Below are positions 1,913 to 47,468 of a stretch of DNA of 49,180 bases, one piece after another. The notes beneath the pieces are model-generated. The model was not told where the DNA came from. It saw only the letters and a list, made by a program, of their open reading frames with translations, and made no database searches. The stretch is from a virus. The stretch is from IMG/VR virus record IMGVR_UViG_3300001097_000008, positions 1 through 49,180 of that record; one strand, written 5' to 3'. Each line of letters begins with the position of its first letter. Positions within the stretch are counted from its first letter, which is position 1. Made by a program: the position numbers and the translations under genes.

Positions 1913-3292
1913 TTAATAATTATTACTTATATCTGTCTTAATTTCAAATCTTATTGGTACACTCATCCTATTATTCTCTAACACACTACCAGCAATGGTT
2001 GTATATTTTTTATTATTCTTAATTCTATAATACAAAACAGTTCCATAACCATAATTCAATGCCATTTGTTTAGTATACACCTTTAAATTATCCTCATATT
2101 CGACTATCTCCTCATCTAATATGGTATTAAAATTTTCAGTATCTGATATTTCAACAGTAAAAAACCCTAAACCCTCATTAGTTACACCATTAACACGCCA
2201 AGAAATATCAATAACATTTCCATTTATTATGTTCGAAGTGTTATTACCAGTATCATATATTACATTGATCATATCCCCAATTGCTAGAGTACCTTTTAAT
2301 ATTATCCTTCTTTTATTTGTTTTAGATATCATAAAATCAATATCTTTGGTTAATAAAATACCATTTAATGTTAATAATAATGTCTCACCATCCTTAATAT
2401 TCTCATTCACATATATCTCATAAGTCTCTTTTGTCGTATTAAAATAACATTTTGATTTACCTTGCTCATCAATTTTACCATTTAAAATATATCTAACCTC
2501 AATATGCTCACTTTTTAATGTATTGTTTATATTATCACCATAAAATATATAGTTGAGTATATCACTACTCTTTAAATCACCTATAAGAGTAATTAAATTA
2601 TCTTCAATATTATAATCCAAATTTTCAGTTAAAATTAAACCATTCAGTGTAATTAAAATAGATTTAGCATCTCTAGTATTTAAAGGATAAGTCTTAACCC
2701 CATCTTCAATATCTATTGTGTTAAAATTAAAATTATTATTATTTTTACCTTTATTAGTTTTTATTATGTCTATTAAAGGCTCTTCTGGTTTATATAACAA
2801 AACAAAATATTTATCAAGTTTTTCATCATAATTCATAGGTAGGTGATCACTCAATGTATTGGTTACTATTTCCTTATTTAACCTATCAAATACTTCTAAG
2901 TTTATTGGGTGTTTAAATTCAAATTTAATGGCATATTCACCCTCCTTTAGGTTGTTAGTATTAATACTATTAATAAAATTATTTGGTTCTTCATATTCAG
3001 TTATAAGGGCATCATTAATATCAAAATTTTCATTTTCTTTATCATATGGTACTAAATATAATCTATATTTAGTTTCAGGGTTAAACGATGTTACATTTAA
3101 AAATGTAGTTTCCAATTCTAACATAAAATCATCATCAACCCAATGTAAAAAATCACTATCCTCTGTTACTACTGACATTTTATCTGCACCACTAACATTA
3201 TTATCTGGTATTTTAAAAAAAGAAATATCTGAATAAGCTTTAATTATCTCCCCATTAAATGTTTTTTGATAAAATTTAACCCCTTTACTCAT
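1913..3292 (-). CDS. Virion protein with two adhesin-like ITLNG repeats
   Basis: 459 aa from ATG at 3292. A TTG two codons earlier is possible but less likely. The ATG overlaps the upstream stop by 8 nt (ATGAGTAA), which suggests translational coupling. Two similar segments lie in the middle, at about residues 200-255 and 290-350. Each has a YxLN/YxIYVN strand, then ITLNGLILT or LTLNGILLT, then DYNI or DFMI, ILKG/LIGDL, and an IxVIYDTG or LNYIFYGDN end. This is the beta-rich phage fibre/decoration repeat built around an (I/L)TLNG(I/L)xLT core. The flanks resemble no family I recognise. Location at the distal end of the baseplate/fibre block suggests an exposed tail-fibre or baseplate-decoration protein; this is inference. 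Confidence 0.85.
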   Translation of the reverse strand: MSKGVKFYQKTFNGEIIKAYSDISFFKIPDNNVSGADKMSVVTEDSDFLHWVDDDFMLELETTFLNVTSFNPETKYRLYLVPYDKENENFDINDALITEYEEPNNFINSINTNNLKEGEYAIKFEFKHPINLEVFDRLNKEIVTNTLSDHLPMNYDEKLDKYFVLLYKPEEPLIDIIKTNKGKNNNNFNFNTIDIEDGVKTYPLNTRDAKSILITLNGLILTENLDYNIEDNLITLIGDLKSSDILNYIFYGDNINNTLKSEHIEVRYILNGKIDEQGKSKCYFNTTKETYEIYVNENIKDGETLLLTLNGILLTKDIDFMISKTNKRRIILKGTLAIGDMINVIYDTGNNTSNIINGNVIDISWRVNGVTNEGLGFFTVEISDTENFNTILDEEIVEYEDNLKVYTKQMALNYGYGTVLYYRIKNNKKYTTIAGSVLENNRMSVPIRFEIKTDISNNY

Positions 3293-3563
3293 AATCAAAT
3301 TTAATTATTTTTATTACTTTATTATTCTTATAACCATAGTTATGACCTTTAAACGGTAATTTATTAATTTCACTATTACTTAAGTCTAATATAATATTAT
3401 TATCATTAAAGGGATTATTGTTGGAGTTATTACCCCCATTATCATTAGGTTTATTTTTATCACCTGACAAAAATAATAACCCATTTATATCACTAAAACC
3501 AAACATTTCTGCTACTATTGGTTCGGTTAATGAAACTTCTATTTTTTTTAAAAATTTACCCAT
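3285..3563 (-). CDS. Small Asn/Gly-rich virion-block protein
   Basis: 92 aa with an ATG start at 3563. The N-terminal part (MGKFLKKIEVSLTEPIVAEM) is followed by FGFSDINGLLFLSG and a low-complexity linker rich in Asn, Asp and Gly at about residues 36-55. A short ordered-looking C-terminus ends KVIKIIKFDYE. It sits 7 bp after the 636-aa gene and overlaps the next gene by 8 nt, so it is an operon member of the fibre block. I do not recognise the family. It could be a small adaptor or fibre cap, but nothing in the sequence proves that. Confidence 0.75.
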   Translation of the reverse strand: MGKFLKKIEVSLTEPIVAEMFGFSDINGLLFLSGDKNKPNDNGGNNSNNNPFNDNNIILDLSNSEINKLPFKGHNYGYKNNKVIKIIKFDYE

Positions 3564-3570
3564 CGTTTAA

Positions 3571-5481
3571 TTATTCACTTAAATATGTTACACTCCCCAC
3601 ATTTTCTACATTCCCTAGTTCTGTGGATCCGTAACTAATAAAATCTATTGTACTCGCATCATCATTATAACTTTCAATATACACTTCATTACATTTTGAT
3701 TGGTTATTATATCGTTCAACATTACGATTTTTCTGTAAATAAGTTTGTATCACTTCAACATCTTCAAACCCAACATTAGATGCTATTTTTGTTGATTTAG
3801 ATTTACAAAATTTTAATGAATATCTTCTATATTTAAATTTATTATCATTAAATATCATATTCTTTATTATGTGCGACCCACCCCATAAGGTTGTTGCTGG
3901 TATCACTTGTTCAATTAAATCAACCCAATAATTACCCAACAAATCTAAAAACTTATCTAATATTCTATAATCATAAGAATTACTCTTAAGACCACCCAAA
4001 TAATATTCAGAATTTAAATACCTTTCATATATCATCTTTAAAATCGGATAACCACTTATAACCTTTCTACTTTTAACATCAATAAGTTCACTATAAAAAA
4101 TTTTAACAATATCTTTAATAAAGGTTATATTTTCCACTTTTTTTGAAAGTAGTTTAGTTAAACCAATCCCACTATAAGTATCACCCCCATCACCAATTAA
4201 TATACCTGGGTTATTTTTAATGAATAGTGAAACATCTTCCTCTATAGCATTACTAACTGATGTCTCTAAATCAATTTCCTTTGTGTTTACAACTAAACGC
4301 TCATCAGTAATAGAATAATCAGTATCTCTATATGGTAAATCAAAAATACGGTCTTGCTTTGTACTTACCCAACTTTTCTTATTATCAATGGTTTTTACTA
4401 GATCATATGTTGGAATACCTCTCTTTACCTTTTCACGTATTAATGTGTTTTCACAAACCTTATCTAATACAATATTATCCATTTCAATAGAAAAATCAAT
4501 TAACATGTTTTCAACTAAAATACTAAATTTTATTTCTTCATCAATAATAGCATTTATTACCGCTTCATCCTTTATATTTACATTATAACTAATTAAATCA
4601 CCTTTAACTATATTAACCCTATCATCTTCATTCAATAAACTATCCCCATCTAATAAAGCATTTATGGTACTGTTTAAGCCCTCGATTTTAATTCCACAAT
4701 CATTATACCCATCATCACCATTTAACTCATATAAATCACCCTTAAGGATCGTTTCTAACCCATCAGGTACTTTCTTCTCAATGAGTAGACTTAATTTTAA
4801 TTTATCAATAACATTACTCACACCTAATCTTTTTGTTAGAGGGGGTAATTCATTGAAATAATTGGTTATGTCTTCAACAAGGTAACTTATTAAATAATCA
4901 AAACTTAAATTTAAATAGCAGTTTTGGTCATATCCTGTAGTAAAAACCAAACCACTCTCACCATTAACATTAAACACTATTTTAATGTTTTCACAACCAC
5001 GCTTATAATAACATTTATTTTTATTATAATCAAAAGGATAACCTAATTTATCACAACATTCTGGATCTAAATTAAATTTTGCTACTTTAACATTCCCAAT
5101 TTTTTCATCTTTCCTTGTTTTTTGGTTGTTGATTGTAGTGTTATTTGATTCTTCACTCATATAATACCCATAAACCACCCCATCTTCATCGAAGACGAAT
5201 TGATTTACCCAATTACCATTAATATCTTTACATAAATTATTCTTATAATAACACTTACCAACAGAATTATCGTATATGTGACCTAATTCAGAACAACATT
5301 CTTCATCTAAGTGTTCACTACTTTCCCTTATGGGTATGTTATTATTTGATTTATCAGTAATATCACCCTTTGTTAATAATGTAAGTCCATTATTTGAGTC
5401 TGCCGTATATACACCCATAATGATACCATCATCACCATAATTATATTTAATATATTTGTTACACTTTCGACCCATAATCAT
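3571..5481 (-). CDS. Cys-module baseplate/fibre protein, downstream half
   Basis: 636 aa from ATG at 5481; a second ATG two codons on, at 5475, is equally possible. The first 145 residues hold two copies of a four-Cys module (EECCSELG...GKCYYK-x3-C and ECCDKLG...NKCYYK-x2-C), the same module found four times at the end of the upstream gene. The middle is unrecognised. The C-terminal third contains LDLLGNYWVDLIEQVIPATT followed by LWGG, which I associate with large baseplate or fibre-attachment proteins of T4-like Bacteroidota phages. The start overlaps the upstream gene by 17-23 nt. Reading the junction in the +1 frame completes an interrupted Cys module, so this may be the second half of a single ~1700-aa protein (see findings). 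Confidence 0.85.
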   Translation of the reverse strand: MIMGRKCNKYIKYNYGDDGIIMGVYTADSNNGLTLLTKGDITDKSNNNIPIRESSEHLDEECCSELGHIYDNSVGKCYYKNNLCKDINGNWVNQFVFDEDGVVYGYYMSEESNNTTINNQKTRKDEKIGNVKVAKFNLDPECCDKLGYPFDYNKNKCYYKRGCENIKIVFNVNGESGLVFTTGYDQNCYLNLSFDYLISYLVEDITNYFNELPPLTKRLGVSNVIDKLKLSLLIEKKVPDGLETILKGDLYELNGDDGYNDCGIKIEGLNSTINALLDGDSLLNEDDRVNIVKGDLISYNVNIKDEAVINAIIDEEIKFSILVENMLIDFSIEMDNIVLDKVCENTLIREKVKRGIPTYDLVKTIDNKKSWVSTKQDRIFDLPYRDTDYSITDERLVVNTKEIDLETSVSNAIEEDVSLFIKNNPGILIGDGGDTYSGIGLTKLLSKKVENITFIKDIVKIFYSELIDVKSRKVISGYPILKMIYERYLNSEYYLGGLKSNSYDYRILDKFLDLLGNYWVDLIEQVIPATTLWGGSHIIKNMIFNDNKFKYRRYSLKFCKSKSTKIASNVGFEDVEVIQTYLQKNRNVERYNNQSKCNEVYIESYNDDASTIDFISYGSTELGNVENVGSVTYLSE

Positions 5482-8400
5482 TATTTATTTTACATTTAAC
5501 ACCCCCAGAAGTATATTCTGGAGTACTAATTCTAGGGCAACATGCTGGGCTATTAACAATATAACTCATCATACCATTCTTTAAAAAACCTACATACCCA
5601 TTCACATATCTATCAGTAACAGTAAACCCATCACAAAACTCGAAATCACCATTTTTACACTTATAACCACCCTCACTTCGTACCGCTATTAAATTATTAT
5701 TTGTACAGCATTCAGGTGTTGATACTATTGTTGTCGTTTCTGTACTACTTAGATCTGTTTTAAATAAAGCATATTCACCATTATATTTACCAGTTAATAT
5801 TTTACAATCATAAGGATTATATTCTTCCTCTTCATTAGTTTTTTTACATATAAACCCTTCTCCACTTTTAATTGGAATCCCACCATTTGATCTACAACAT
5901 TCGGCAGTTGGTACTATTTCTGTTTCACCACCAGTTTTTATATTTTTAAACTGTATGTATGTAGTTTTACTTGGATTACTAAGTACGTTAGACGTATCAA
6001 TTGGGTGATAATTAGAGCATTCATCTTCAATATATTCTTCTTTCCAATAACATTTATTTAATGCGTATTTTTTTGAATCTTTATTGGTTGGTTGTTTAGA
6101 TATAAAACCTAAACTTTCACAACACACTTTACTTATGCGTGAATTCTTCGCACCATCACTATGTGTGAAAATAACCGTACCATCACCATCTAATTTAAAA
6201 GAGGTAAACCCACAACCTAAAATTTGATAATCTGATTTAATCTTTTCAATTCTTATTTTATATCTAGAATCACTACAAGTATCACATTCCTCATATTCAT
6301 CTTTTTTTATCTGTATAATTTCATCCGTAACTAAAAAACAACTATCAACACTAAAATTATCTTCATCTAAAACCTCAATAAAAGATTCTATTTCACCATC
6401 ATCCCTTTTAAATATATCCTCACCTATTAAGGTAATTTCTCTACAATTAATAGTTTCTAAACCATCACAAATAGCACCTATTTTAACTCCTATTTTAAAC
6501 TCAATTTTATTATTTTCATAAATATTAATATCATCACATAAATTACCCTTTACTAAAATTTTATATTCATCATCTTCAACAACATGAGTTAAATCCAATT
6601 CAACTATTAACCTATCATACGCATCTTTTAAATCCTCCATAGTGGGGTGAATATTATCACTAACCACAATTTCATCTATTTTGATTACACTACCATCAAT
6701 ATATGTAAATAAAACCCATTCAGTAGTAATCTCACAACTACCATCAATATCTTTACAATTTTCTACCCCCTCGGTATATAAACTTTCAAAATCAACATCT
6801 AAAGGAGCTATAGCCACTAAATCATTAGTATATAACCCATCAAAAACACCATTATTATAATTTAAATACCCAGTTGTTCTTGTTATTACATTTCTAACAT
6901 CTCTAATTGTTCTACTACTACCCTCATTTATTAGTACATTGTATTGATTTATATATTCATAACCTCTATCATATGGACCAATATGTGGATTATTACCACT
7001 TAGCACATCAATATTACTATTAGGCCCTCCAGTCTCTCTATACCATAGACCACCCTTCTGAAAATACATTTCAGGGGTATTCGGTAATATTCTAGGATAA
7101 CCCTCTTCATCAATAACTGAGGTATTTTCATTATATTCTAAACCATTTTCAGATAACATCTTTTTATAGAGATTGATATCTACTTTATTATGTGAATTAT
7201 AAATATATTCATTAAATTTTACCAACCCTTTTGGGGTACCAATAAATTTTAATAAAAATTCAATAACTTTTCTAGTACCTTTAGATTTCCATATCCAAGG
7301 ACTATTTAAAATTAATCTTCGCCAAAACTCTATTTCAGATTCAACTGGACTTAAATTTAATTCACCACCACTATAAAAATCTTCATTAAAATCTATATTA
7401 AATAGTGACGTAGTTAATTCCCAACCTAACGTTCTAGCTAAATTCTTAACTAATCTATCAGGTACATTATTTTGTTTATTATATGTAACAGTATTAATGT
7501 ATTTAATGCCATCAATATAATTTTTTATATCATCGAAATTTCTACCATATATCCTAAGCGTTTTACCTATTTTTTCCTCAATAGTATCAAACTCCAATAT
7601 TGATTTACTCACCAATTTATTAATTATTAGATTAGAGCTTTCAATGTCACTTACCTTCGCAATATTTAATAACTTAATGACATACGTATTATAATCATCA
7701 CTATCATAATCTATATTATAACCATCACTTACTGGCCAGATAACATGTTTTTTACCAATAATTGTTTGACCGTTATCACTTTGATATTCATATGTAAACT
7801 CACCCCTATATTTAGGTGTTGTTTTATTATTTAATAAATTATTCTCAAAACCATTTAATTCATGATAGAATTTTTTAATTTTCTTAGTATTTGGTTTGAT
7901 GTGGTAATTAGTAATATTATTCTGATTTGGGAATGGATTACCTTCAACTTTTAAAATTATGGGTTGGTCTGACGTATCATTTGGCTCATTTAATTCATTT
8001 ACAACAAAACCATCAAACTCTTTTACTTGATATTCCAACTCACCTATCATTAAAACATAATCACCATATGATAAATTAAAATCCCTTAACTTATTATTTT
8101 CATTAAATGTATTAAGATTATTACCACCCTCCTTTATATTAATACCAAACTTATTAACTATCGAATTAAATGGTATTTCGAATGAAGTAGTATTGGTTAT
8201 TGGATCGTATACATTATTATCATAAATTGAGTTTGTCGTTGTTGGGTTTATTTGATTCGTTTCTGTTATGAATAAAGATGCGGGCCATTTAGTAATTATG
8301 TTTTCTAATGACACTCTAACAAATTCCCTTAAAGAACCAAAATAAGCGTAGTTAGATAGGTCATTATCATTTAAATTTAATTTGATTTTATTCTCACCAA

Positions 8401-18228: not shown

Positions 18229-18252
18229 AAAAATAGGGTTTCCCCTATTTTT
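18229..18252 (-). terminator. Intrinsic terminator between helicase and gp25 genes
   Basis: A stem of AAAAATAGGG paired with CCCTATTTTT, with a short GAAA-type loop, is followed on the minus strand by a T tract of about nine. It lies just after the helicase C-half stop (18275) and before gp25 (18180), and so separates the replication and baseplate transcription units. Confidence 0.85.
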
Positions 18253-18274: not shown

Positions 18275-18742
18275 TTAAGTAGTTTTTTTATCTTCATCCA
18301 ATCTCTTAAGCATATCATTTAACTTATTCTGACTTTCAACAGTTTTATGTTTTTTAGCTTGTAAAAAGGTTTTACCGCCAGATTCTGATAAATCAATAGT
18401 AACAGTTGAATTATCAAATATTACATCTTCAAAGGTTATCCCATCGTCACCGAACCTAGATTTTAAAACTGCTACATTAGCTGTTTTATTTTCTTTCTGT
18501 TCTAATGACTTAGCAACAGATAATATAAAGTGACCTATTTGGGCTTTTTTAATTGAACCGCCCATTTGATCCGCCTCCACATATTCGGCACTGATGGATG
18601 AATTATGTGTATATATATCATTAGCAAAAAACATATGCGTATCTTCAACAGTTATATCTAAAGTTTCTTCTTCTCCAATTAATTCAATAGACTCAATTTC
18701 ATCTACCTCAACTTCATTTAAATTTAAATTGTGTTCTCTCAT
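18275..18742 (-). CDS. gp41: Replicative helicase C-half with C-terminal split intein (IntC + C-extein)
   Basis: 155 aa. Residues 1-47 are a split-intein C-fragment: an acidic lead-in, then EEETLDITVEDTHMFFANDI and YTHN, matching intein block F and block G with the penultimate His and terminal Asn. Splicing would join after Asn47, with Ser48 as the +1 nucleophile. Residues 48-155 are the missing end of a DnaB/gp41-type helicase (SSISAEYVEADQMGGSIKKA, later LKSRFGDDGITFEDVIFDNS). The ATG overlaps the stop of the N-half gene by 1 nt (TAATG) and has its own AAATAAATA start context, so both halves should be made from one mRNA and joined by protein trans-splicing. The C-half alone lacks Walker motifs and cannot be an active helicase. 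Confidence 0.95.
   Translation of the reverse strand: MREHNLNLNEVEVDEIESIELIGEEETLDITVEDTHMFFANDIYTHNSSISAEYVEADQMGGSIKKAQIGHFILSVAKSLEQKENKTANVAVLKSRFGDDGITFEDVIFDNSTVTIDLSESGGKTFLQAKKHKTVESQNKLNDMLKRLDEDKKTT
18602..18742 (-). other. Split intein, C-terminal fragment (IntC, 47 aa)
   Basis: Codons 1-47 of the helicase C-half gene. Block F is TLDITVEDTHMFFANDI; the end is THN followed by Ser. From memory, it resembles the C-fragment of the gp41-8 split intein found in marine metagenomes, in length and in the EETxDIxV...(L/M)FFANxIxTHN-S pattern. Confidence 0.93.
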
Positions 18743-20124
18743 TATTTATTTTTTTTTAAAAATTTTTTTATTTCTTTTTCTTTATTTTTTATAAATAATT
18801 TATCACCCACTTTTAATCCACTTGATATTGACTTAAGCTTATTATAATGGGTTGGGAATTCATGTTTAGCCGAAACTTTAATTTCTTTACCAGATTTAAG
18901 TTTTATTTTATATACTGGTTGTTTCTCAATAGGAAAAACATGTTTTATATTTTTATAACCATCATGTGTTAAAATTTTATCTCCAACAATAACATTTTTA
19001 ATTAATGTTTCACCTTTTCCCTCTAACTCAACCTTAGTATCTAATGCTACACAGCGATTTCCTTGTATCGGAGCCCAACCTACCATATCCATTTCATATA
19101 ACATAGACTCAAATTCACGCATAGTAGCACCCTCACCAACATTTTCATCTTTATGTAACCTAGATGCTTGAACAACATCCATATAATCAATTAGTATCAT
19201 ATCGGGTTTAAACCCTGAACTTATTAATTTTTTAACATATTTTCTAATTTTAGGTATAGTTGTAGTAGAACTTGACATTTTTTTCAACTTTAATTGCCCA
19301 CCACTACTCTTCTTGGTTTCATTTATCGCCAATATAGCATCCCTATTTTCGGGCGAACCTAAATCATTTATTGGTATTCCACTCCAACATGCTAAATGTT
19401 TTCTCTGTATTTGTTTAGGCAAATCTTCAAAGAATATTTGTAAGACCTTATATCCCATATCTTTGGCTGTACTAGCTATTTTGGTAACAATAGTAGTTTT
19501 ACCCACACCTAATGGTGCTAATATAATCCCTAATTCACCTTTAGCTAATCCACCATTCATTATTGGATCTAACCCTTTTATCCCAGTAGGTATTGGGTGT
19601 CTGTAATCTTCTTTTAATACTTCTTCAACATTATCAGTAACATTTAAACTATCATCTTTATTATCACCTGCCTCTAAAGCACTTTTAATAATTTCTTCAC
19701 ATTCTTGGTACGAATCTAAATCACCCTTTTGTATAATAGTATTTATTAAGGTAATAGCTTTTTTTAAATTCTGTTGCTTAAAGAATTTCATTGCAACATC
19801 TTGTACATTTTGAGAATCATTACAATCTACCTCACTAATTAATTTAATTAGTGCTAAATTTTTCTTCTGAGTTATTTCACTGTTAGTTGAATTCGCTAAT
19901 CGTATTTTTAAACTTTCAATATCTAATACAACCTCAGACTCCTCATACACATCAACCATTTCAGAAGCGATGACCCTTAAACTAGGGTCATCGAAATTAC
20001 TTGGATTAACAATATCTAAAATACTTTCAGCAAAACGTCTATCAGTTAGTAATTGATTTACTAATCTTCTCTGATATTCAATCCCTAAATAACCTAAAGT
20101 ATCTTTATTTACCTTCACACTCAT
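18742..20124 (-). CDS. gp41: Replicative DNA helicase N-half with N-terminal split intein (N-extein + IntN)
   Basis: 460 aa, ATG at 20124. Residues 1-357 are a DnaB/T4 gp41-type helicase: a helical N-terminal domain; Walker A APLGVGKTT with Lys209; a Walker-B-type strand MILIDYMDVVQ; and the DnaB H4 strand ending QGNR. Right after QGNR, Cys358 begins an intein N-fragment of 103 aa: block A CVALDTKVEL, block B GKEIKVSAKHEFPT with its His, then SGLKVGDKLF and a Lys-rich tail. The ORF stops there. The rest of the helicase is in the next gene, joined by TAATG. Mature spliced helicase would be 357 + 108 = 465 aa, the usual gp41 size. It unwinds DNA at the fork and works with the neighbouring gp32 and recombinase. 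Confidence 0.95.
   Translation of the reverse strand: MSVKVNKDTLGYLGIEYQRRLVNQLLTDRRFAESILDIVNPSNFDDPSLRVIASEMVDVYEESEVVLDIESLKIRLANSTNSEITQKKNLALIKLISEVDCNDSQNVQDVAMKFFKQQNLKKAITLINTIIQKGDLDSYQECEEIIKSALEAGDNKDDSLNVTDNVEEVLKEDYRHPIPTGIKGLDPIMNGGLAKGELGIILAPLGVGKTTIVTKIASTAKDMGYKVLQIFFEDLPKQIQRKHLACWSGIPINDLGSPENRDAILAINETKKSSGGQLKLKKMSSSTTTIPKIRKYVKKLISSGFKPDMILIDYMDVVQASRLHKDENVGEGATMREFESMLYEMDMVGWAPIQGNRCVALDTKVELEGKGETLIKNVIVGDKILTHDGYKNIKHVFPIEKQPVYKIKLKSGKEIKVSAKHEFPTHYNKLKSISSGLKVGDKLFIKNKEKEIKKFLKKNK
18745..19053 (-). other. Split intein, N-terminal fragment (IntN, 103 aa)
   Basis: Residues 358-460 of the helicase N-half. Cys1, a block A of CVALDTKV, the GYKNIKHVFPIEKQPVYKI strand region, and block B with SAKHEFPT are visible. 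The pattern FPIxKQPVxxIxLKSGKxIxVSAxHxFPT and SGLKVGD closely recalls gp41-8 IntN. A basic tail (KEKEIKKFLKKNK) pairs with the acidic start of IntC, as in split inteins that associate by charge. There is no homing endonuclease between the halves. Confidence 0.93.
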
Positions 20125-20142
20125 ATTATATCTACTTTAATT

Positions 20143-21690
20143 TTATACTAAAACTTCTTCTTTAGCAGGTGTATACTCATTTAAACTCATATAATTAATT
20201 ATTTCAGTTATAATATAGGGTAGTATATATTTAATGTTAACCGATTCTCTCAACCCAAACGGGAAATAATTACCACAAAAAGTTGATTCAGCGACAATGC
20301 GTTTATCCACTTTAATCTCAAAAGTAAAATTATCCTCATATTTAAATAAATCCCAATCACTAATATGTTCCTCCTTTTGGTCATAGAAGGCATCAAAACT
20401 ATTCCATAATAAGCGGATATTTTGTAATTTAAAACTATTTGGTATCATACCTAATTCACCAAAAACACCATTATTCATACCAGTAATATTATCCATTAAT
20501 TCTTTCATTTCCATCGAATTTAGGGAATCCTTATTATAGTTCGGTATATAAAAAAATCTTTGAACTATTATACCATCGTTTTTTTTGAAAACTAATTCAA
20601 ATCTTTCTTCTTTATATTTATTCTTTTCCATTATTTGTAAGTTTTTTTTTTCTCTTTCTATTAATTTTTTAAAGGGCATTAAATATTCTATTGAGTAGTT
20701 ATTAATAAGTTTATCAATTCCATCTCTTTTCATTAACAAATAAGCGTTTTTAATACTCCTATTATCTTGACAAAATTCGCTACTCATTAAGTTATTTATT
20801 AATTCCTTACTATCCTCAGTTAATAAAGGTACTGATAAGTCAATTAAACATCTATTAACATCATACAATTTATCTCCTTGGACACCATCAGTAATACCAT
20901 TAATTATATTATTTAATGATTTGAGTGGTTTCTTTTTTTCAATTAACCTCTCATCTTGTAATTCTTTACATTTATTAATTACTTCACTCAATTCAACTTT
21001 TTTTGTTGCTATATCGGGAAAAAATTTAATTAAGGTTGGTTCACCTACACCCTTAACACCTTTTATTGAATCACTACTATCACCAGATATCATTTTAACT
21101 AATACGGTATTACTTTTATGGTATTTAAAAAATTGATTATGATTTTCCTCATTTACGTATACTTTTTTATCACATAAATAAATCCTAACATTTTCATTAA
21201 TCAATTGACATAAATCTCTATCACCACTAACAATCGTAATATTTTCAATATCTTTATTCTTATTGCAATAATACGCAATAAAATCGTCAGCTTCAACGAT
21301 TGGGTGCTCTAATTGTCGAATAAATAATTCTTCTAAATATTCTTGAATTTTTATTCTCTCAATTATCTGATCTCTATCTTCTTCGGGTTTAGTACCATTA
21401 ACATAGTCTTTTCCCCTACTTATTTTATAATCAGAATATATATCAAATCTAAGGTTACCACTATATTCACCATCCCAAAACACATAAACTTTTTGATATA
21501 AAGTTTCATTCAAGAATTTACGTAACATCGTAATAAATTGATATATACCACCTATATGTTCACCTTTTTGATTAAATTCGTCTTTAGCACCGTGATAACC
21601 AGTTTTATATAATGAGTTACCATCAATAATTAACACATTATCTTTTTTATTGATGGTAACACTATTATTTCTGGGTGGCATCCTACCCAT
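20143..21690 (-). CDS. 5'-3' exonuclease / flap nuclease with C-terminal extension
   Basis: 515 aa from ATG at 21690, which overlaps the recombinase stop by 8 nt (ATGGGTAG). A GTG two codons upstream is possible. The nuclease core (about 1-320) has the metal-binding acids of the FEN/T4 RNase H family: LIIDGN, VEADDFIAYYC, IVSGDRDLCQL, and the helix-hairpin-helix region ISGDSSDSIKGVKGVGEPT. Such enzymes remove RNA primers and trim 5' flaps during lagging-strand synthesis. T4 RNase H is 305 aa; here about 150 more residues follow (FELVFKKNDGIIVQRFFYIP ... NYFPFGLRESVNIKYILPYI) that I do not recognise. The gene lies between recombinase and helicase and ends 18 bp before the helicase start. Confidence 0.92.
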   Translation of the reverse strand: MGRMPPRNNSVTINKKDNVLIIDGNSLYKTGYHGAKDEFNQKGEHIGGIYQFITMLRKFLNETLYQKVYVFWDGEYSGNLRFDIYSDYKISRGKDYVNGTKPEEDRDQIIERIKIQEYLEELFIRQLEHPIVEADDFIAYYCNKNKDIENITIVSGDRDLCQLINENVRIYLCDKKVYVNEENHNQFFKYHKSNTVLVKMISGDSSDSIKGVKGVGEPTLIKFFPDIATKKVELSEVINKCKELQDERLIEKKKPLKSLNNIINGITDGVQGDKLYDVNRCLIDLSVPLLTEDSKELINNLMSSEFCQDNRSIKNAYLLMKRDGIDKLINNYSIEYLMPFKKLIEREKKNLQIMEKNKYKEERFELVFKKNDGIIVQRFFYIPNYNKDSLNSMEMKELMDNITGMNNGVFGELGMIPNSFKLQNIRLLWNSFDAFYDQKEEHISDWDLFKYEDNFTFEIKVDKRIVAESTFCGNYFPFGLRESVNIKYILPYIITEIINYMSLNEYTPAKEEVLV

Positions 21691-22798
21691 CTTCACCCCC
21701 CTTAATTACTTCACCTTCATTATTCTCATAAACCACATTAAAATCTTCGGTACCAGAACCTAATTTTTTAGAAATAAATTCTTTATTATCTTTCTTATAC
21801 TGATCTAATTTTTCTGGGTTATAGAATCCATGTGCGGTACTAGCTATTTTACCTTTTAATGTTAAATTCGTAACATGATTTTTAAAAACTTCAATTTTAG
21901 ATATACTAGCAAAGGTATATTCATTACCTTTATGTGTTGCTTTCTTTTTATTTGAACCTGACATTATCTTACCACCTAAATGGAAGATCATTCTAGCGAA
22001 ATAAAGAAAACCTTCACCTCCACTATGCTTAACTGATGGTTGTCCAATTGCATTAGCTTGTAACCATATCTTATTCACTACTGCAAAGGTATTTGTGTAA
22101 GGTGAGGCTTCTCGTTTTGAGTCTGGTATCGCTGAGTGCATAATACTAGTAAATTGTTGTTTTAACGCACCCGCATCCCACATATTATTACTAGATCCAC
22201 TCATTTCCGCTTTGAAACAACCAATTGAACCAATTGAATCCCATAGAAATAATATATCTTGTTCAATACCACCATCCATCTGTTCTTTTAAAATATCTTT
22301 AGTGAATTTAGCAACGTCCTCTATTACTGGGTTTATCCTTAAATCCTTTGTACCAGATTTACCACTACGATAGTCAAATTTAATATACATTCTAAGTAAA
22401 TCACTACCGTTTACATACATAAAATTACCTTCATAATCAATAATATTACCATCATCATCTTTGATTTCCGTAAATTCCATACCAACATCCTTAGCACGGT
22501 CAAATTTAAAGCTACTTTCAGTATCTATTATCACTGGAAATGCACCTATTTTTTGTGCACCTACAACCGATTCATAAATAGCTGTAGACTTTCCAGTATC
22601 TGAGAAACCTCTAAATAAACTACATTCACCTTTAGGTATTCCTGGTAATCCCGTAGCTTCAAACCAAGAATCACTAAATGGAATCCATTCAATATCTTTA
22701 TTTTTGATAGGTTTATTAGCACCTAATTTTTCTTTAAGGCTTTTTATATCAAACTTTTTCTTAGTTATACCACTTTTTTTTGGGGCTTTTTTTGCCAT
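21683..22798 (-). CDS. uvsX: UvsX/RecA-like recombinase
   Basis: 371 aa, ATG at 22798. It has a RecA-type ATPase core: ECSLFRGFSDTGKSTAIYES (Walker A, Lys70), FPVIIDTESSFKFDRAKDVG, a Walker-B strand DILFLWDSIGSIG, and NTFAVVNKIWLQANAIGQPS before a loop and FARMIFHLGG. The length is close to T4 UvsX (391 aa). UvsX forms filaments on ssDNA and drives recombination-dependent replication, helped by gp32, encoded next door. The basic N-terminus (MAKKAPKKSG) may help DNA binding. The 64-bp leader contains an imperfect stem (about 22813-22843). Confidence 0.9.
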   Translation of the reverse strand: MAKKAPKKSGITKKKFDIKSLKEKLGANKPIKNKDIEWIPFSDSWFEATGLPGIPKGECSLFRGFSDTGKSTAIYESVVGAQKIGAFPVIIDTESSFKFDRAKDVGMEFTEIKDDDGNIIDYEGNFMYVNGSDLLRMYIKFDYRSGKSGTKDLRINPVIEDVAKFTKDILKEQMDGGIEQDILFLWDSIGSIGCFKAEMSGSSNNMWDAGALKQQFTSIMHSAIPDSKREASPYTNTFAVVNKIWLQANAIGQPSVKHSGGEGFLYFARMIFHLGGKIMSGSNKKKATHKGNEYTFASISKIEVFKNHVTNLTLKGKIASTAHGFYNPEKLDQYKKDNKEFISKKLGSGTEDFNVVYENNEGEVIKGGEDG

Positions 22799-22862
22799 AT
22801 TTTTTTTTTATAAAGGAGTGAATATTATTACCCACCCCTTTGATTAAATATTTTTTTTTTAA

Positions 22863-23846
22863 TTAAAAAGGATAATCATCCTCTTCTTCTTCATTAGAAG
22901 GTTTAGCTTCCTTAGTTTCAGTCTTAGGCACTTCCTTAGTTTCAGTCTTAGGCACTTCCTTAGTTTCAGTCTTAGGTGTTTCACCAGTTTCTGTCTTAGG
23001 CACTTCCTTAGTTTCAGTCTTAGGTGTTTCACCAGTTTCACCACCACCAATAGTTAATTCACTGTTAAGATCATCATAATCATTATCATCTGTATTCTTA
23101 TCAGCATTTTTATCAACATATTTTTTAGCATCTCTGTCCCAAGTTGGTTCACCACCTTCTACTAAGATTCTAAGATAATCATAACCTTTAACAGTATAAA
23201 CATCTCTCCAAGTTCGAGAATCATTTGTCCATACATCTTCTTTAGACTTATCGTCACTTAATGGTGTTACACCATCGTAAGATGTTACAATACTACTAAC
23301 AATTGGAATATCACTAGAATTTCTATTTATTGATAAAATTAAATCAATACCATCTACTGGGTCAGTTAAATCTTTTCTAGATAATTTAAAAAGACTAATA
23401 ATTTTATCATAATTACCTTCTTTCTTAAATGAGTGGTTAATTCTCCAAAACTTAACACCTTCATCTTCTTTATCTCTATCAATAACCTTTAAAATATACC
23501 CTTGTTTAGGTTTATATTTATAAGATAATTTCCTATCCTCGTCTGTTTTTTTATCTAACAATAACGTATTTGCTTCACAAAAAGGACAATCCTCACCATC
23601 CATTTCTTTAGGACACATAAACTTAGGATATCTACCATCCACCTTTACAGTGTGATAGAATACTTTTGTAAATGGTGTCTGACCTTCATCTGGTGGTAAT
23701 AACCTAATACGTTTAACTGCTTCATTAACACCTTTTGGGATAAAGGTGCTGAAGTAATTGGTTAAATCTACTTGACTTCCTTTACTTCCACTTGTAGCTT
23801 CACTATTTTTATTATATTCAGCTAAAATTGCATCTAAATTACTCAT
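22863..23846 (-). CDS. gp32: Single-stranded DNA-binding protein, gp32-like
   Basis: 327 aa, ATG at 23846. The gp32 zinc site is clear: His65-x12-Cys78-x8-Cys87-x2-Cys90, nearly the same spacing and positions as T4 gp32 (His64, Cys77, Cys87, Cys90). Core strands such as QGYILKVIDRDKEDEGVKFW fit the OB fold. The C-terminal ~60 residues contain a tandem 8-residue PKTETKEV-type repeat and finish with NEEEEDDYPF, an acidic tip like that of bacterial SSB (DDDIPF) and unlike T4 gp32. The tip probably recruits partner proteins. The gene has a near-perfect Bacteroidota promoter upstream, so it is probably read by host RNA polymerase early in infection. Confidence 0.95.
   Translation of the reverse strand: MSNLDAILAEYNKNSEATSGSKGSQVDLTNYFSTFIPKGVNEAVKRIRLLPPDEGQTPFTKVFYHTVKVDGRYPKFMCPKEMDGEDCPFCEANTLLLDKKTDEDRKLSYKYKPKQGYILKVIDRDKEDEGVKFWRINHSFKKEGNYDKIISLFKLSRKDLTDPVDGIDLILSINRNSSDIPIVSSIVTSYDGVTPLSDDKSKEDVWTNDSRTWRDVYTVKGYDYLRILVEGGEPTWDRDAKKYVDKNADKNTDDNDYDDLNSELTIGGGETGETPKTETKEVPKTETGETPKTETKEVPKTETKEVPKTETKEAKPSNEEEEDDYPF
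22907..23040 (-). repeat. 24-bp tandem repeat in the gp32 C-terminal linker
   Basis: About 5.6 tandem 24-bp units (22907, 22931, 22955, 22979, 23003, 23027) encode PKTETKEV/PKTETGET octads. Copies are nearly identical, so unit number is likely to vary by slippage. The unit keeps the frame. Confidence 0.92.
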
Positions 23847-44534: not shown

Positions 44535-47468
44535 TTGATAAATATAGATAAATTAAAAAATGTTTCAGTATTAGAACTCCTTAATAAGTATAAGGGTAAA
44601 AACCCCTATTTAAAAAAACTTAGAAAAGAATATATGAAGGGGAAGGTAGCCTTTACTAATACCCAAGTTAAATATATTTCGGAATTCCATAATGTAGACC
44701 CACATAAGGTTGAAAGGGTTATCGCTATAACTGAATATCTAGGTTTAGAATTACAGAAAAAATATAGTATAAAATTTGTACCAGAAAAAATATTAATAGG
44801 TTTTATTCTTGCCGATACCGATAAAGCTTTTCATATTTACGGTAAACTAAAAAAAAATCAAGAAAATTATCAAATGTATTGGTTACCCAAAACACAAGTT
44901 TTGGATGATCCTTATTGGGAAGAACCTAATGTAGAGGTTGATTTTGATAAGTATGTTGAATTAGATAATAAAAATAGAACACCTTATGAACATCAGAAAA
45001 GTGGTATAAAGTTCTTATTATCTAGGAAAGGTGCTATATTGGCTGATGATATGGGGTTAGGTAAAAGTTATATGTCAATTGTTGCTGCGCTAGAGAGTGG
45101 TGCTGAAAGAATATTAGTTGTTTGTCCATCCGCAGTTAAAATAAATTGGGAAAGGGAAATTAATTGTTTTGATGATCAAACAGTTATAATTAATGGTAAA
45201 AAATGGGATACCAGTAAATTTACTATCATTAATTATGATATCTTAAAGAATTTCCATACAACCAAAGATAAACGAACATCCAAAGAATATATTAAAAAAG
45301 GTGGTTTAATAAATAACCATTTAGTTGATGCTAAATTTGATTTAGTGATTATAGATGAAGCTCACAACCTAAAAAATTATAAAAGTATTAGGGGTAAAAT
45401 AATGAGTGAATTAATTGTTAAGTATGGTATTGAAAGAACTTGGTTATTAACTGGTACACCAGTAGCAAATAAACCAATGGATTTTTATAACCTACTCAAA
45501 TTAGTTGGCTCTCCCTTGGTAGAAAATTTTAATTTCTTTGCTAAAAGATATTGTGATGGTAAAACTTTTTGGAAGAAATTTAAAAACGGGAAGAGTAGGA
45601 AAATATGGTTAACGGATGGTGCTTCAAATTTAAATGAATTAGCAGCCAAAACTAAAAATATTATAATAAGGCGTAAAAAGGAAGATGTTTTGGATATGCC
45701 AGAGAAAACAATCTCAACTATTTACCACGAATTAACTCCTAAACAAATTAAGGAATATACCAATATTTGGGAAGAATATTTGATTGAAAGGAAAAAGAAG
45801 AAGAAACGAGGAGCTGTAGAAAAGGACTTAGTAGAGCTTATCTTATTACGTAAGTATATTGCACTAGAAACGATACCAAAGACCATAGAAATGATTGAAA
45901 ACGCTATTGAGCAAGGTAATAAAGTAATTGTGTTCACCAACTTCCAAGATGAAATGGATGTATTGTACGATCACTTTAAAAAAATAGCGGTAAAACATAA
46001 CGGTAAAATGTCGGGTATTAATAAACAAATATCCGTGGATAGATTTCAAGAAGATGATAATGTTAAATTATTCATTGGGAACGTTATATCTGCTGGTGTG
46101 GGAATTACATTAACGGCAGCAACAACAGTAATATTCAATTCTTTATATTGGGTCCCAGGTAATATATTACAAGCGATTGATCGTTGTATTTTTAAGGGTC
46201 AATTAGTTATGACAAATAATGGTTATGTTAGTATTGAGGATATTAAAATAGGTGATATGGTTTATAGTCATGAGGGTAATTTTAAGAAGGTCGTAAACAC
46301 ACATTCACATTTGGAGCGTAAAAAATTAAGAGTTGATATAGATGCATTTGGTTTTAATAATACCTTAGCCACAACACATGACCATAAAATATATGTATAC
46401 AATAAAGAGTTTGATAGTTTTAATTGGGTAGAAGCTGGTAAGTTAGATATTAAAAATGAATTACTAACCCTTAAGAGTAATAAACAACCAAGTCAAAGAA
46501 AAGAGTTTATAACCTTAACCAAACACTCATCAAATACTTTCATTAATAATTGGGGTGTTGAACAAAGAAAAAGTGGTGTTATTTTACCAGAACAAGTTGA
46601 ACTAAGTAATGATCTATTATATGCGTTCGGTTTTTATGTTGCTGATGGTTGGTCTACAGATGGGTTATTAAAAAATGGGGCTGGTATAAATGTGGTTCAA
46701 AAAATAGATAATAAAAAAATGTATGATGCTGCTGAATATATTATGAATATTTTTAGATATTCATTTGGTTTTGAAAAACATAGTGAATATATTGATAAAA
46801 AAAATGCTAAAACATGTATGATTTATAATACCGAGTTAGCCCTGAATTTTTTAGGGTGGTTTGGTAAAGGTGCATATAATAAACAATTTCCTGATTGGGT
46901 TGATGAACTTAATAATGAACAATTAAAAAGTTTATTAGATGGGTATTACCATGGTGATGGACACCAACGTAAAAATACTCAACAAGCTACCACTGCATCC
47001 AGTAAATTAATGAGTCAATTAATGCGATATAACGCTAATTTAGGTAGGGGGGTTAGTTTACAAATAACTAATACTGGTTACTATTCAATTGAATACACAA
47101 TAGACCCTAATAAGAAAAATAGGATTTATGAGTATAGTGGATATATTTTATATCCAATAAAATCATTACATATTTCTAGGCCCGTTAAAGGTGAGGATCG
47201 TGTTTATGATTTATCCGTGGAAGATGATCATTCATTTATTGTTGGTAATTACAATGTACATAATTGTTATCGAATCGGTCAAGAGAATAATGTTTCAGTG
47301 TATTTTAATATTTTTAAAAATACTATTGATGAAAGAATATGGGAAAGATTATTTAGTAAGACTGGTATTATAGAAACAATTTTAAATGGTGAGCAGGAAA
47401 GTAATATTTTTGTTGCTGATGATAGTAACAATGAAGATGAATTAGATAAAATAATTGATGATGAGTAA
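44535..47468 (+). CDS. SNF2-family helicase/ATPase interrupted by an intein
   Basis: 977 aa. The start is probably TTG at 44535; no in-frame ATG lies between the upstream stop and codon 34 or so. Residues 1-550 carry SNF2 motifs: ILADDMGLGKS (Lys177), LVVCPSAVKINW, IIDEAHNLKN (D274-H277), WLLTGTPVANKP, VIVFTNFQDEMDVL, and ISAGVGITLTAATTVI. At LQAIDR the protein is broken by a 360-aa intein (551-910). It resumes as CYRIGQENNVSVYFNIFKNT, so the spliced product (617 aa) regains the SNF2 motif DR-C-YRIGQ. It is probably a fork-remodelling or recombination helicase comparable in role to T4 UvsW. It overlaps the glutaredoxin-like gene by 8 nt. Confidence 0.93.
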   Translation: MINIDKLKNVSVLELLNKYKGKNPYLKKLRKEYMKGKVAFTNTQVKYISEFHNVDPHKVERVIAITEYLGLELQKKYSIKFVPEKILIGFILADTDKAFHIYGKLKKNQENYQMYWLPKTQVLDDPYWEEPNVEVDFDKYVELDNKNRTPYEHQKSGIKFLLSRKGAILADDMGLGKSYMSIVAALESGAERILVVCPSAVKINWEREINCFDDQTVIINGKKWDTSKFTIINYDILKNFHTTKDKRTSKEYIKKGGLINNHLVDAKFDLVIIDEAHNLKNYKSIRGKIMSELIVKYGIERTWLLTGTPVANKPMDFYNLLKLVGSPLVENFNFFAKRYCDGKTFWKKFKNGKSRKIWLTDGASNLNELAAKTKNIIIRRKKEDVLDMPEKTISTIYHELTPKQIKEYTNIWEEYLIERKKKKKRGAVEKDLVELILLRKYIALETIPKTIEMIENAIEQGNKVIVFTNFQDEMDVLYDHFKKIAVKHNGKMSGINKQISVDRFQEDDNVKLFIGNVISAGVGITLTAATTVIFNSLYWVPGNILQAIDRCIFKGQLVMTNNGYVSIEDIKIGDMVYSHEGNFKKVVNTHSHLERKKLRVDIDAFGFNNTLATTHDHKIYVYNKEFDSFNWVEAGKLDIKNELLTLKSNKQPSQRKEFITLTKHSSNTFINNWGVEQRKSGVILPEQVELSNDLLYAFGFYVADGWSTDGLLKNGAGINVVQKIDNKKMYDAAEYIMNIFRYSFGFEKHSEYIDKKNAKTCMIYNTELALNFLGWFGKGAYNKQFPDWVDELNNEQLKSLLDGYYHGDGHQRKNTQQATTASSKLMSQLMRYNANLGRGVSLQITNTGYYSIEYTIDPNKKNRIYEYSGYILYPIKSLHISRPVKGEDRVYDLSVEDDHSFIVGNYNVHNCYRIGQENNVSVYFNIFKNTIDERIWERLFSKTGIIETILNGEQESNIFVADDSNNEDELDKIIDDE
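46185..47264 (+). mobile_element. Intein with LAGLIDADG homing endonuclease, 360 aa
   Basis: Codons 551-910 of the SNF2 gene. Splicing blocks: Cys1 with CIFKGQLVMTNNGYVSIEDI (block A), LATTHDHKIYV (block B with TxxH), VYDLSVEDDHSFIVGNYNVH (block F) and HN at the end, with Cys as +1 residue. Endonuclease blocks: LLYAFGFYVADGW and LLDGYYHGDGH, the two LAGLIDADG helices with their acidic residues. All catalytic positions look intact, so it may both splice and home. It sits inside the most conserved SNF2 motif (DR/CYRIGQ), a typical intein target. Confidence 0.95.

What the first reader, a model, noticed from the sequence alone, without database searches (positions are those of the whole stretch)
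18275..20124. Replicative helicase encoded as two genes joined by a split intein
The DnaB/gp41 helicase stops after a 103-aa intein N-fragment (Cys358 after QGNR). The next gene begins with a 47-aa intein C-fragment ending THN-Ser and then supplies the rest of the helicase. All splicing residues look intact and the halves are coupled by TAATG on one transcript, so an active helicase should need protein trans-splicing. From memory, the sequence resembles the gp41-8 split intein, known from marine metagenomes with no assigned phage. This locus would place that family in a Bacteroidota phage. Unlike the reported fractured genes, no homing endonuclease gene lies between the halves.
Basis: partly seen in the sequence, partly recalled or inferred. 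Interest (0 to 1): 0.8.

Follow-up and report, generated by a model that had tools for sequence, protein, structure and literature searches.

The report
Phage helicase split by trans-splicing intein
This phage makes its DNA-replication motor as two separate proteins that probably join themselves through a split intein, and comparison with about 100 related loci indicates the split is a relic of a parasitic nuclease gene that once sat between the halves and left about 14 codons behind.

Summary
Confirmed. A gp41/DnaB-type helicase is encoded as two overlapping genes (20124-18742 and 18742-18275, minus strand). The first ends in a 103-aa intein N-fragment; the second starts with a 47-aa C-fragment. 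The closest solved intein is gp41-1 (E=3e-20), and splicing residues are intact. IMG/VR relatives give 70 distinct intein variants at the same site, QGNR|S: 45 split with a ~1.2-kb spacer holding a Vsr/DUF559-like homing endonuclease (HEN), 9 with a decayed HEN, 9 (including this one) split with no HEN, and 7 fused into one ORF. 103 related loci have an empty site. The extra 14 residues of the window's IntN (NKEKEIKKFLKKNK) look like the last codons of the lost HEN fused in frame; clearer scars occur in four other HEN-less lineages. Fused inteins sit among split+HEN ones on the intein tree. Best explanation: a gp41-type fractured gene that lost its endonuclease but still needs protein trans-splicing, because the helicase's Lys/Arg finger lies in the second gene. 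Split gp41 inteins are a known kind; the HEN-less scarred state and nested fused forms are the added value. No splicing was tested, a Bacteroidota host is only suggested, and gp41-8 identity could not be tested.

The parts
19054..20124 (-). N-extein of the gp41/DnaB helicase (residues 1-357; Walker A GVGKTT, Walker B LIDYMD; ends QGNR, the conserved H3-type motif)
   Evidence: Pfam DnaB_C and PHROG_19; Foldseek top hit T4 gp41 8gao/8dtp; QGNR in 103/103 empty-site relatives
18787..19053 (-). IntN core, 89 aa, starting Cys358 (Cys1) with block B SxxH (S61, H64 of the intein)
   Evidence: Alignment to gp41-1 6qaz; conserved in 62 unique inteins
18745..18786 (-). 14-residue IntN extension NKEKEIKKFLKKNK, read as the in-frame remnant (scar) of the 3' end of a deleted homing endonuclease gene
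   Evidence: Absent from most relatives' IntN. End-anchored protein test 0/3000 shuffles and 0 of 1031 other ORF tails as good, but unanchored HMM 155/3000. DNA profile 10.4 bits: 2 of about 1867 control segments and 0/2000 shuffles as high
18740..18744 (-). TAATG: stop of the N-half overlapping the start of the C-half
   Evidence: Sequence; in relatives the IntC start overlaps or abuts the HEN 3' end
18602..18742 (-). IntC, 47 aa, ending HMFFANDIYTHN (blocks F and G)
   Evidence: NCBIfam intein_Cterm 1.6e-6; profile to gp41-1 E=3.8e-9 and NrdJ-1 E=0.0014; H46 and N47 in 62/62
18278..18601 (-). C-extein of the helicase (108 aa, Ser+1), carrying the Lys/Arg-finger motif KSRFG
   Evidence: K47 161/161 and R49 160/161 across intein-bearing and empty-site relatives
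18229..18252 (-). Terminator-like hairpin with T-run just after the C-half, consistent with one transcript for both halves
   Evidence: 2 such sites found in the region against 0.4 expected
20143..23846 (-). Upstream replication genes: gp32-like ssDNA-binding protein, recombinase, 5'-3' exonuclease
   Evidence: Pfam; same order in Flavobacterium phage immuto, where the helicase is uninterrupted

Best explanation
The locus makes the two halves of the phage replicative helicase as separate proteins, probably from one transcript. IntN and IntC fragments (class 1 by sequence: Cys1, terminal Asn, Ser+1) associate, splice in trans and leave a 465-aa helicase. The arrangement descends from a mobile 'fractured' gp41 locus (split intein + free-standing Vsr-like homing endonuclease) that entered the QGNR|S site horizontally. 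In this lineage the endonuclease gene was deleted. About 14 of its last codons stayed, fused in frame to IntN, probably because they carry the start region of the IntC gene. Without the nuclease the intein is immobile, but it is maintained because the helicase needs both halves joined. Shown: anatomy, conserved residues, relatives, purifying selection. Statistically supported: the scar. Inferred: splicing activity, need for splicing, order of events, one transcript.
For: Same-site split inteins in 63 of 70 distinct variants, most with a ~1.2-kb HEN gene between the halves; HEN = DUF559/MTES_1575 nuclease families. A graded series exists: full spacer (45), decayed (9), none (9); L084 and L082/L083 have 99-100% identical exteins and differ by about 0.94 kb deleted inside the HEN. 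HEN-tail scars (KEKIINECINFLNN*, KEQIINICINFINETT*, KQQIIDKCLNFINERT*, EENTSKCIKIIYEKS*) can be read in the DNA before IntC in L068-71, L136, L122, L028 (profile scores). The window tail fits the same profile. Splicing residues intact. Intein dN is well below dS between HEN-less loci, e.g. L075/L076 IntN 0.11 vs 0.73, and between the window and relatives. The Lys/Arg finger is only in the C-half. Horizontal entry: window intein 75% identical to L101, whose extein is 43% identical, while the nearest exteins (57%) have empty sites; at least 15 gain/loss changes on the extein tree. IntN is net positive (+13), IntC net negative (-13), which would favour association.
Against: No splicing experiment exists for this locus. 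The scar is short and Lys-rich: the unanchored HMM test is weak (155/3000), the protein and DNA tests use the same bases, and three HEN-less loci (L065, L075, L076) show no scar. No near relative of the window with the same junction was found, so the deletion itself is not seen in this lineage. One extra base in the last 5 nt before the ATG would make a single ORF, so a point error is not formally excluded. The trees have long branches and weak deep nodes.
Confidence: 0.82

Rival explanations
1. The halves work without splicing, as a gene-in-pieces helicase that assembles non-covalently (as reported for a phage ribonucleotide reductase split by a homing endonuclease, cited in PMC10448857).
For: Such split enzymes exist; the two halves are co-encoded.
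Against: All splicing residues are kept across 62 unique inteins with dN well below dS, which non-splicing fragments would not need; unspliced halves would keep intein domains at the QGNR motif and have Walker A/B and the Lys/Arg finger on different chains; 7 variants keep the intein in one ORF.
Confidence: 0.05
2. An ordinary continuous mini-intein whose reading frame is broken by an assembly or sequencing error.
For: Fused inteins exist in relatives; one inserted base in the last 5 nt before the ATG would join the frames.
Against: No single deletion within 150 nt joins them; eight other HEN-less split variants show the same design; the window keeps the IntC start region MREHNLN that fused forms lack.
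Confidence: 0.04
3. Trans-splicing occurs, but the 14-residue tail is an unrelated extension and not a remnant of a HEN.
For: Tail is short and Lys-rich; unanchored HMM test 155/3000; L065, L075 and L076 have no visible scar.
Against: Four other HEN-less lineages carry clear HEN-tail scars in the same place; the window tail beats shuffles and nearly all control segments in the DNA and end-anchored tests; HEN-bearing relatives are common.
Confidence: 0.15
4. The split is kept because trans-splicing controls when active helicase appears (a regulatory role) rather than as a relic.
For: HEN-less split forms persist with conserved inteins.
Against: Scattered presence/absence with at least 15 changes and fused and empty alleles in relatives suggest no general need for the split; no regulatory feature was found.
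Confidence: 0.08

Closest known systems
gp41-1 split intein (PDB 6qaz/6riz; cyanophage-like, from ocean metagenomes)
   Same: Intein of a gp41 helicase, block-B His, THN ending; E=3e-20 over both halves; Cys1 and Ser+1 reported (PMC11766414)
   Different: Clearly diverged in sequence; its insertion site was not compared here
gp41-8 split intein (metagenomic)
   Same: Class 1, Cys1 and Ser+1, similar fragment sizes: 94 and 50 aa reported (PMC11766414) against 103 and 47 here
Fractured genes (Dassa et al. 2009, NAR 37:2560; paper not held, known from memory and citations)
   Same: Gene broken by a split intein; most same-site relatives also have a Vsr-like homing endonuclease gene between the halves
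   Different: No endonuclease in the window; halves overlap by one base (TAATG); a probable 14-codon HEN remnant is fused to IntN
Fused mini-inteins at the same site (L108-L117, L132)
   Same: Same insertion site and intein family, about 75% identical in the intein
   Different: One ORF, no HEN; in phages with about 41% identical helicases
PolB split intein of Pseudomonas phage MIJ3 (PMC6892783)
   Same: Phage replication gene split by an intein, with a related mini-intein in another phage
   Different: DNA polymerase B, HNH-type endonuclease present
Split gp41 of Shigella phage ESh36 (ON528746, record marked UNVERIFIED)
   Same: Isolated T4-like phage with gp41 in two pieces and a nuclease-like ORF between them
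   Different: Different insertion site (SDIAE|C ... N|SAGLP)

Membership tests
DnaB/gp41 replicative helicase | DnaB-type ATPase core with Walker A/B and C-terminal Lys/Arg finger | tested here: met
Class 1 intein (HINT splicing domain) | Cys1, block-B His, penultimate His, terminal Asn, nucleophilic +1 residue | tested here: met
   All present in the window; conserved in relatives
Class 1 intein (HINT splicing domain) | Protein splicing activity | not testable with these tools
   No experiment possible
Naturally split intein | IntN and IntC encoded by separate ORFs, each fused to one extein | tested here: met
   same layout in 63 of 70 variants
Fractured gene (split intein with free-standing homing endonuclease) | Homing endonuclease gene between the intein halves | tested here: not met
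   Overlap of 1 nt, no HEN-like gene in the window; met in most relatives. So filed as a HEN-less derivative, not as a strict member
Fractured gene (split intein with free-standing homing endonuclease) | Same insertion site and intein lineage as HEN-bearing loci | tested here: met
   QGNR|S site shared; window falls among them in the intein tree
gp41-8 intein allele | Sequence and insertion site of gp41-8 | not testable with these tools
   gp41-8 is not among the PDB matches and its sequence is not in the held papers' text
Bacteroidota phage | Host or nearest relatives in Bacteroidota phages | tested here: inconclusive
   Recombinase matches only Flavobacterium phage immuto, 38% over 99%; sheath and exonuclease also point to Microcystis phage

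The most novel reading that the evidence does not exclude
The remnant of the deleted endonuclease has been put to use: the Lys-rich 14-residue tail it left on IntN acts as a docking arm for the acidic IntC and speeds trans-splicing. The same family shows a full natural cycle: split with nuclease, nuclease loss with scar, then re-fusion into a one-piece mini-intein.
Probability: 0.12. Interest if true: 0.7.

Novelty: new variant of a known kind. Interest (0 to 1): 0.58.

Why it matters
Split inteins of the gp41 type are among the fastest used in protein engineering (PMC7090010; PMC11766414), but they came from metagenomic reads with little genome context. This locus and its relatives give phage contexts for such inteins, natural same-site alleles in four states (empty, split with nuclease, split without, fused), and molecular scars that show how a homing endonuclease can be lost while the gene stays broken. 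That makes the origin, upkeep and reversal of split genes directly testable.

Tried and rejected
Exact junction search in viral contigs: no second copy. C-half against INPHARED phages: no match. N-half as a single-protein scan found only two distant loci; the C-half scan and alignment-based scans worked. Genome-contig scan: one weak archaeal MAG hit. The MAFFT alignment of L103 against L108 slipped and is not used; segment identities are used. Structure of a fused relative (L108) came out at low confidence in the intein and was not searched. Dassa 2009 and Carvajal-Vallejos 2012 are not held. Programmed frameshifting was considered and rejected: there is a C-frame stop two codons before the ATG and no canonical slippery heptamer at the junction by eye. 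An error in the A9 homopolymer was considered: it would not join the frames.

Full report
OBSERVATION. Searches confirm two minus-strand ORFs sharing TAATG: 20124-18742 (460 aa) and 18742-18275 (155 aa). Residues 1-357 of the first are a DnaB/gp41-type helicase (Pfam DnaB_C 1.9e-12; PHROG_19 1e-45); residues 358-460 are an intein N-fragment starting with Cys after QGNR. The second starts with a 47-aa intein C-fragment ending THN and continues with 108 aa of helicase from Ser. The intein as a whole is closest to gp41-1 among solved structures (E=3.3e-20). The AlphaFold2 model of the N-half (mean pLDDT 82.6) matches T4 gp41 best. A terminator-like hairpin follows the C-half, consistent with one transcript.

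RELATIVES. IMG/VR scans and one scan of bacterial and archaeal genomes gave 220 loci. Classified together with the window: 103 contiguous helicases with an empty site, 98 split, 11 fused, 9 partial. Some loci are the same contig fetched twice, so distinct DNA variants were counted: 70 inteins, of which 45 are split with a spacer of at least 1 kb, 9 have decayed spacers, 9 are split without HEN (window included) and 7 are fused. Two of the 45 have a broken HEN ORF. The spacer gene matches the DUF559/MTES_1575 nuclease families. Splicing residues: Cys1 57/57 scored, block-B His 62/62, penultimate His and Asn 62/62, Ser+1 60/60 scored. One fused copy, L113, has Tyr in place of Cys1.

LOSS OF THE ENDONUCLEASE. 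L084 has a full HEN; L082 and L083, with 99.2% identical N-extein and 100% identical C-extein, lack about 0.94 kb of it. In the HEN-less loci L068-71, L136, L122 and L028 the bases before the IntC start still read, in one frame, as the last codons of the HEN. In many HEN-bearing relatives the IntC start overlaps the HEN 3' end, a plausible reason why the tail is kept. The window's IntN is 14 residues longer than the 89-aa core, and the extension NKEKEIKKFLKKNK resembles HEN C-termini such as NKEKVIKECIKFIKNE. End-anchored scoring: 0 of 3000 shuffles and 0 of 1031 other ORF tails reach it; an unanchored HMM is weaker, 155 of 3000. A DNA profile of the 70 bases before IntC scores 10.4 bits; 2 of about 1867 control segments and 0 of 2000 dinucleotide shuffles reach it (the third control at that level is the locus itself). 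These tests share the same bases and are not independent.

TREES. On the intein tree the fused inteins of the L108 group lie among split+HEN inteins with very short branches (support 94/91 for the mixed group); L117 falls apart from them, near L101, with weak support. L103 (split+HEN) and L108 (fused) share 89.8% of N-extein DNA and 96.1% of C-extein DNA. This is best read as split turning into fused, but the tree is unrooted and the reverse is not excluded. On the extein tree at least 15 gains or losses of the intein are needed; the window's nearest exteins (57%) have empty sites, whereas its nearest intein (L101, 75%) sits in a 43% identical helicase. This fits horizontal homing.

FUNCTION. 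The C-extein carries an invariant Lys and a nearly invariant Arg in KSRFG (161/161 and 160/161), which from knowledge of DnaB-type helicases is the Lys/Arg finger. An unspliced N-half would lack it. Intein dN is well below dS between HEN-less loci and relatives (several dS values are near saturation). IntN is net +13 and IntC net -13. Trans-splicing is therefore very likely needed, but it was not shown.

ERROR CHECK. Within 150 nt of the junction no single-base deletion gives one ORF, and only insertions in the last 5 nt before the ATG do. An indel in the upstream A9 run would not join the frames.

PHAGE AND HOST. The neighbourhood is gp32-like protein, recombinase, exonuclease, helicase, with sheath, tube, baseplate and tape-measure genes. 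The recombinase's only matches in INPHARED are Flavobacterium phage immuto, which has the same order and an uninterrupted helicase. Microcystis phage Mel-JY01 also has recombinase, exonuclease-like gene and helicase in this order. A Bacteroidota host is plausible, not established. The window is an IMG/VR virus record of unknown completeness.

KNOWN OR NEW. Inteins in gp41 and fractured genes are known; the primary papers are not held. What differs here is the HEN-less overlapping layout with a probable HEN scar, and relatives in all four states at one site. I found no held paper describing that series, which is weak evidence of novelty.

Noticed in passing
window 44535-47468 (+): SNF2/UvsW-like helicase ORF (977 aa) with a second, continuous intein in motif VI (QAIDR|CIFKG ... 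VHN|CYRIGQ); HINT match at residues 557-657.
   Followed up: partly
L010-L017, L015, L019, L020: The same gp41 helicase carries an extra insert in Walker A, besides the split intein; in L010 and L015 it reads as a continuous intein, and in L015 it has LAGLIDADG endonuclease domains.
   Followed up: partly
L068 vs L069-L071; L065 vs L075: Near-identical loci (99.7% and about 95% in flanks and IntC) differ sharply in IntN alone (about 70% identical): apparent swaps of one intein half in HEN-less loci.
   Followed up: partly
L222 (Shigella phage ESh36, ON528746) 2882-5862: An isolated T4-like phage with gp41 in two pieces around a nuclease-like ORF at a different site; record marked UNVERIFIED.
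   Followed up: partly
L113 2537-4291: Intein Cys1 is Tyr in an otherwise intact fused intein; L115 is nearly identical with Cys. Error or dead intein.
   Followed up: no
L102, L103, L118, spacer after IntN: Inverted repeat CCCCCATCTAA...TTAGATGGGGG between the IntN stop and the HEN start; could be a regulatory hairpin.
   Followed up: no
L221 5001-5105: Pyrodictiaceae archaeon MAG contig with a weak IntC-like match (45%).
   Followed up: no
window 22907-23040: Tandem 24/48-bp repeats in the C-terminal part of the gp32-like gene.
   Followed up: no
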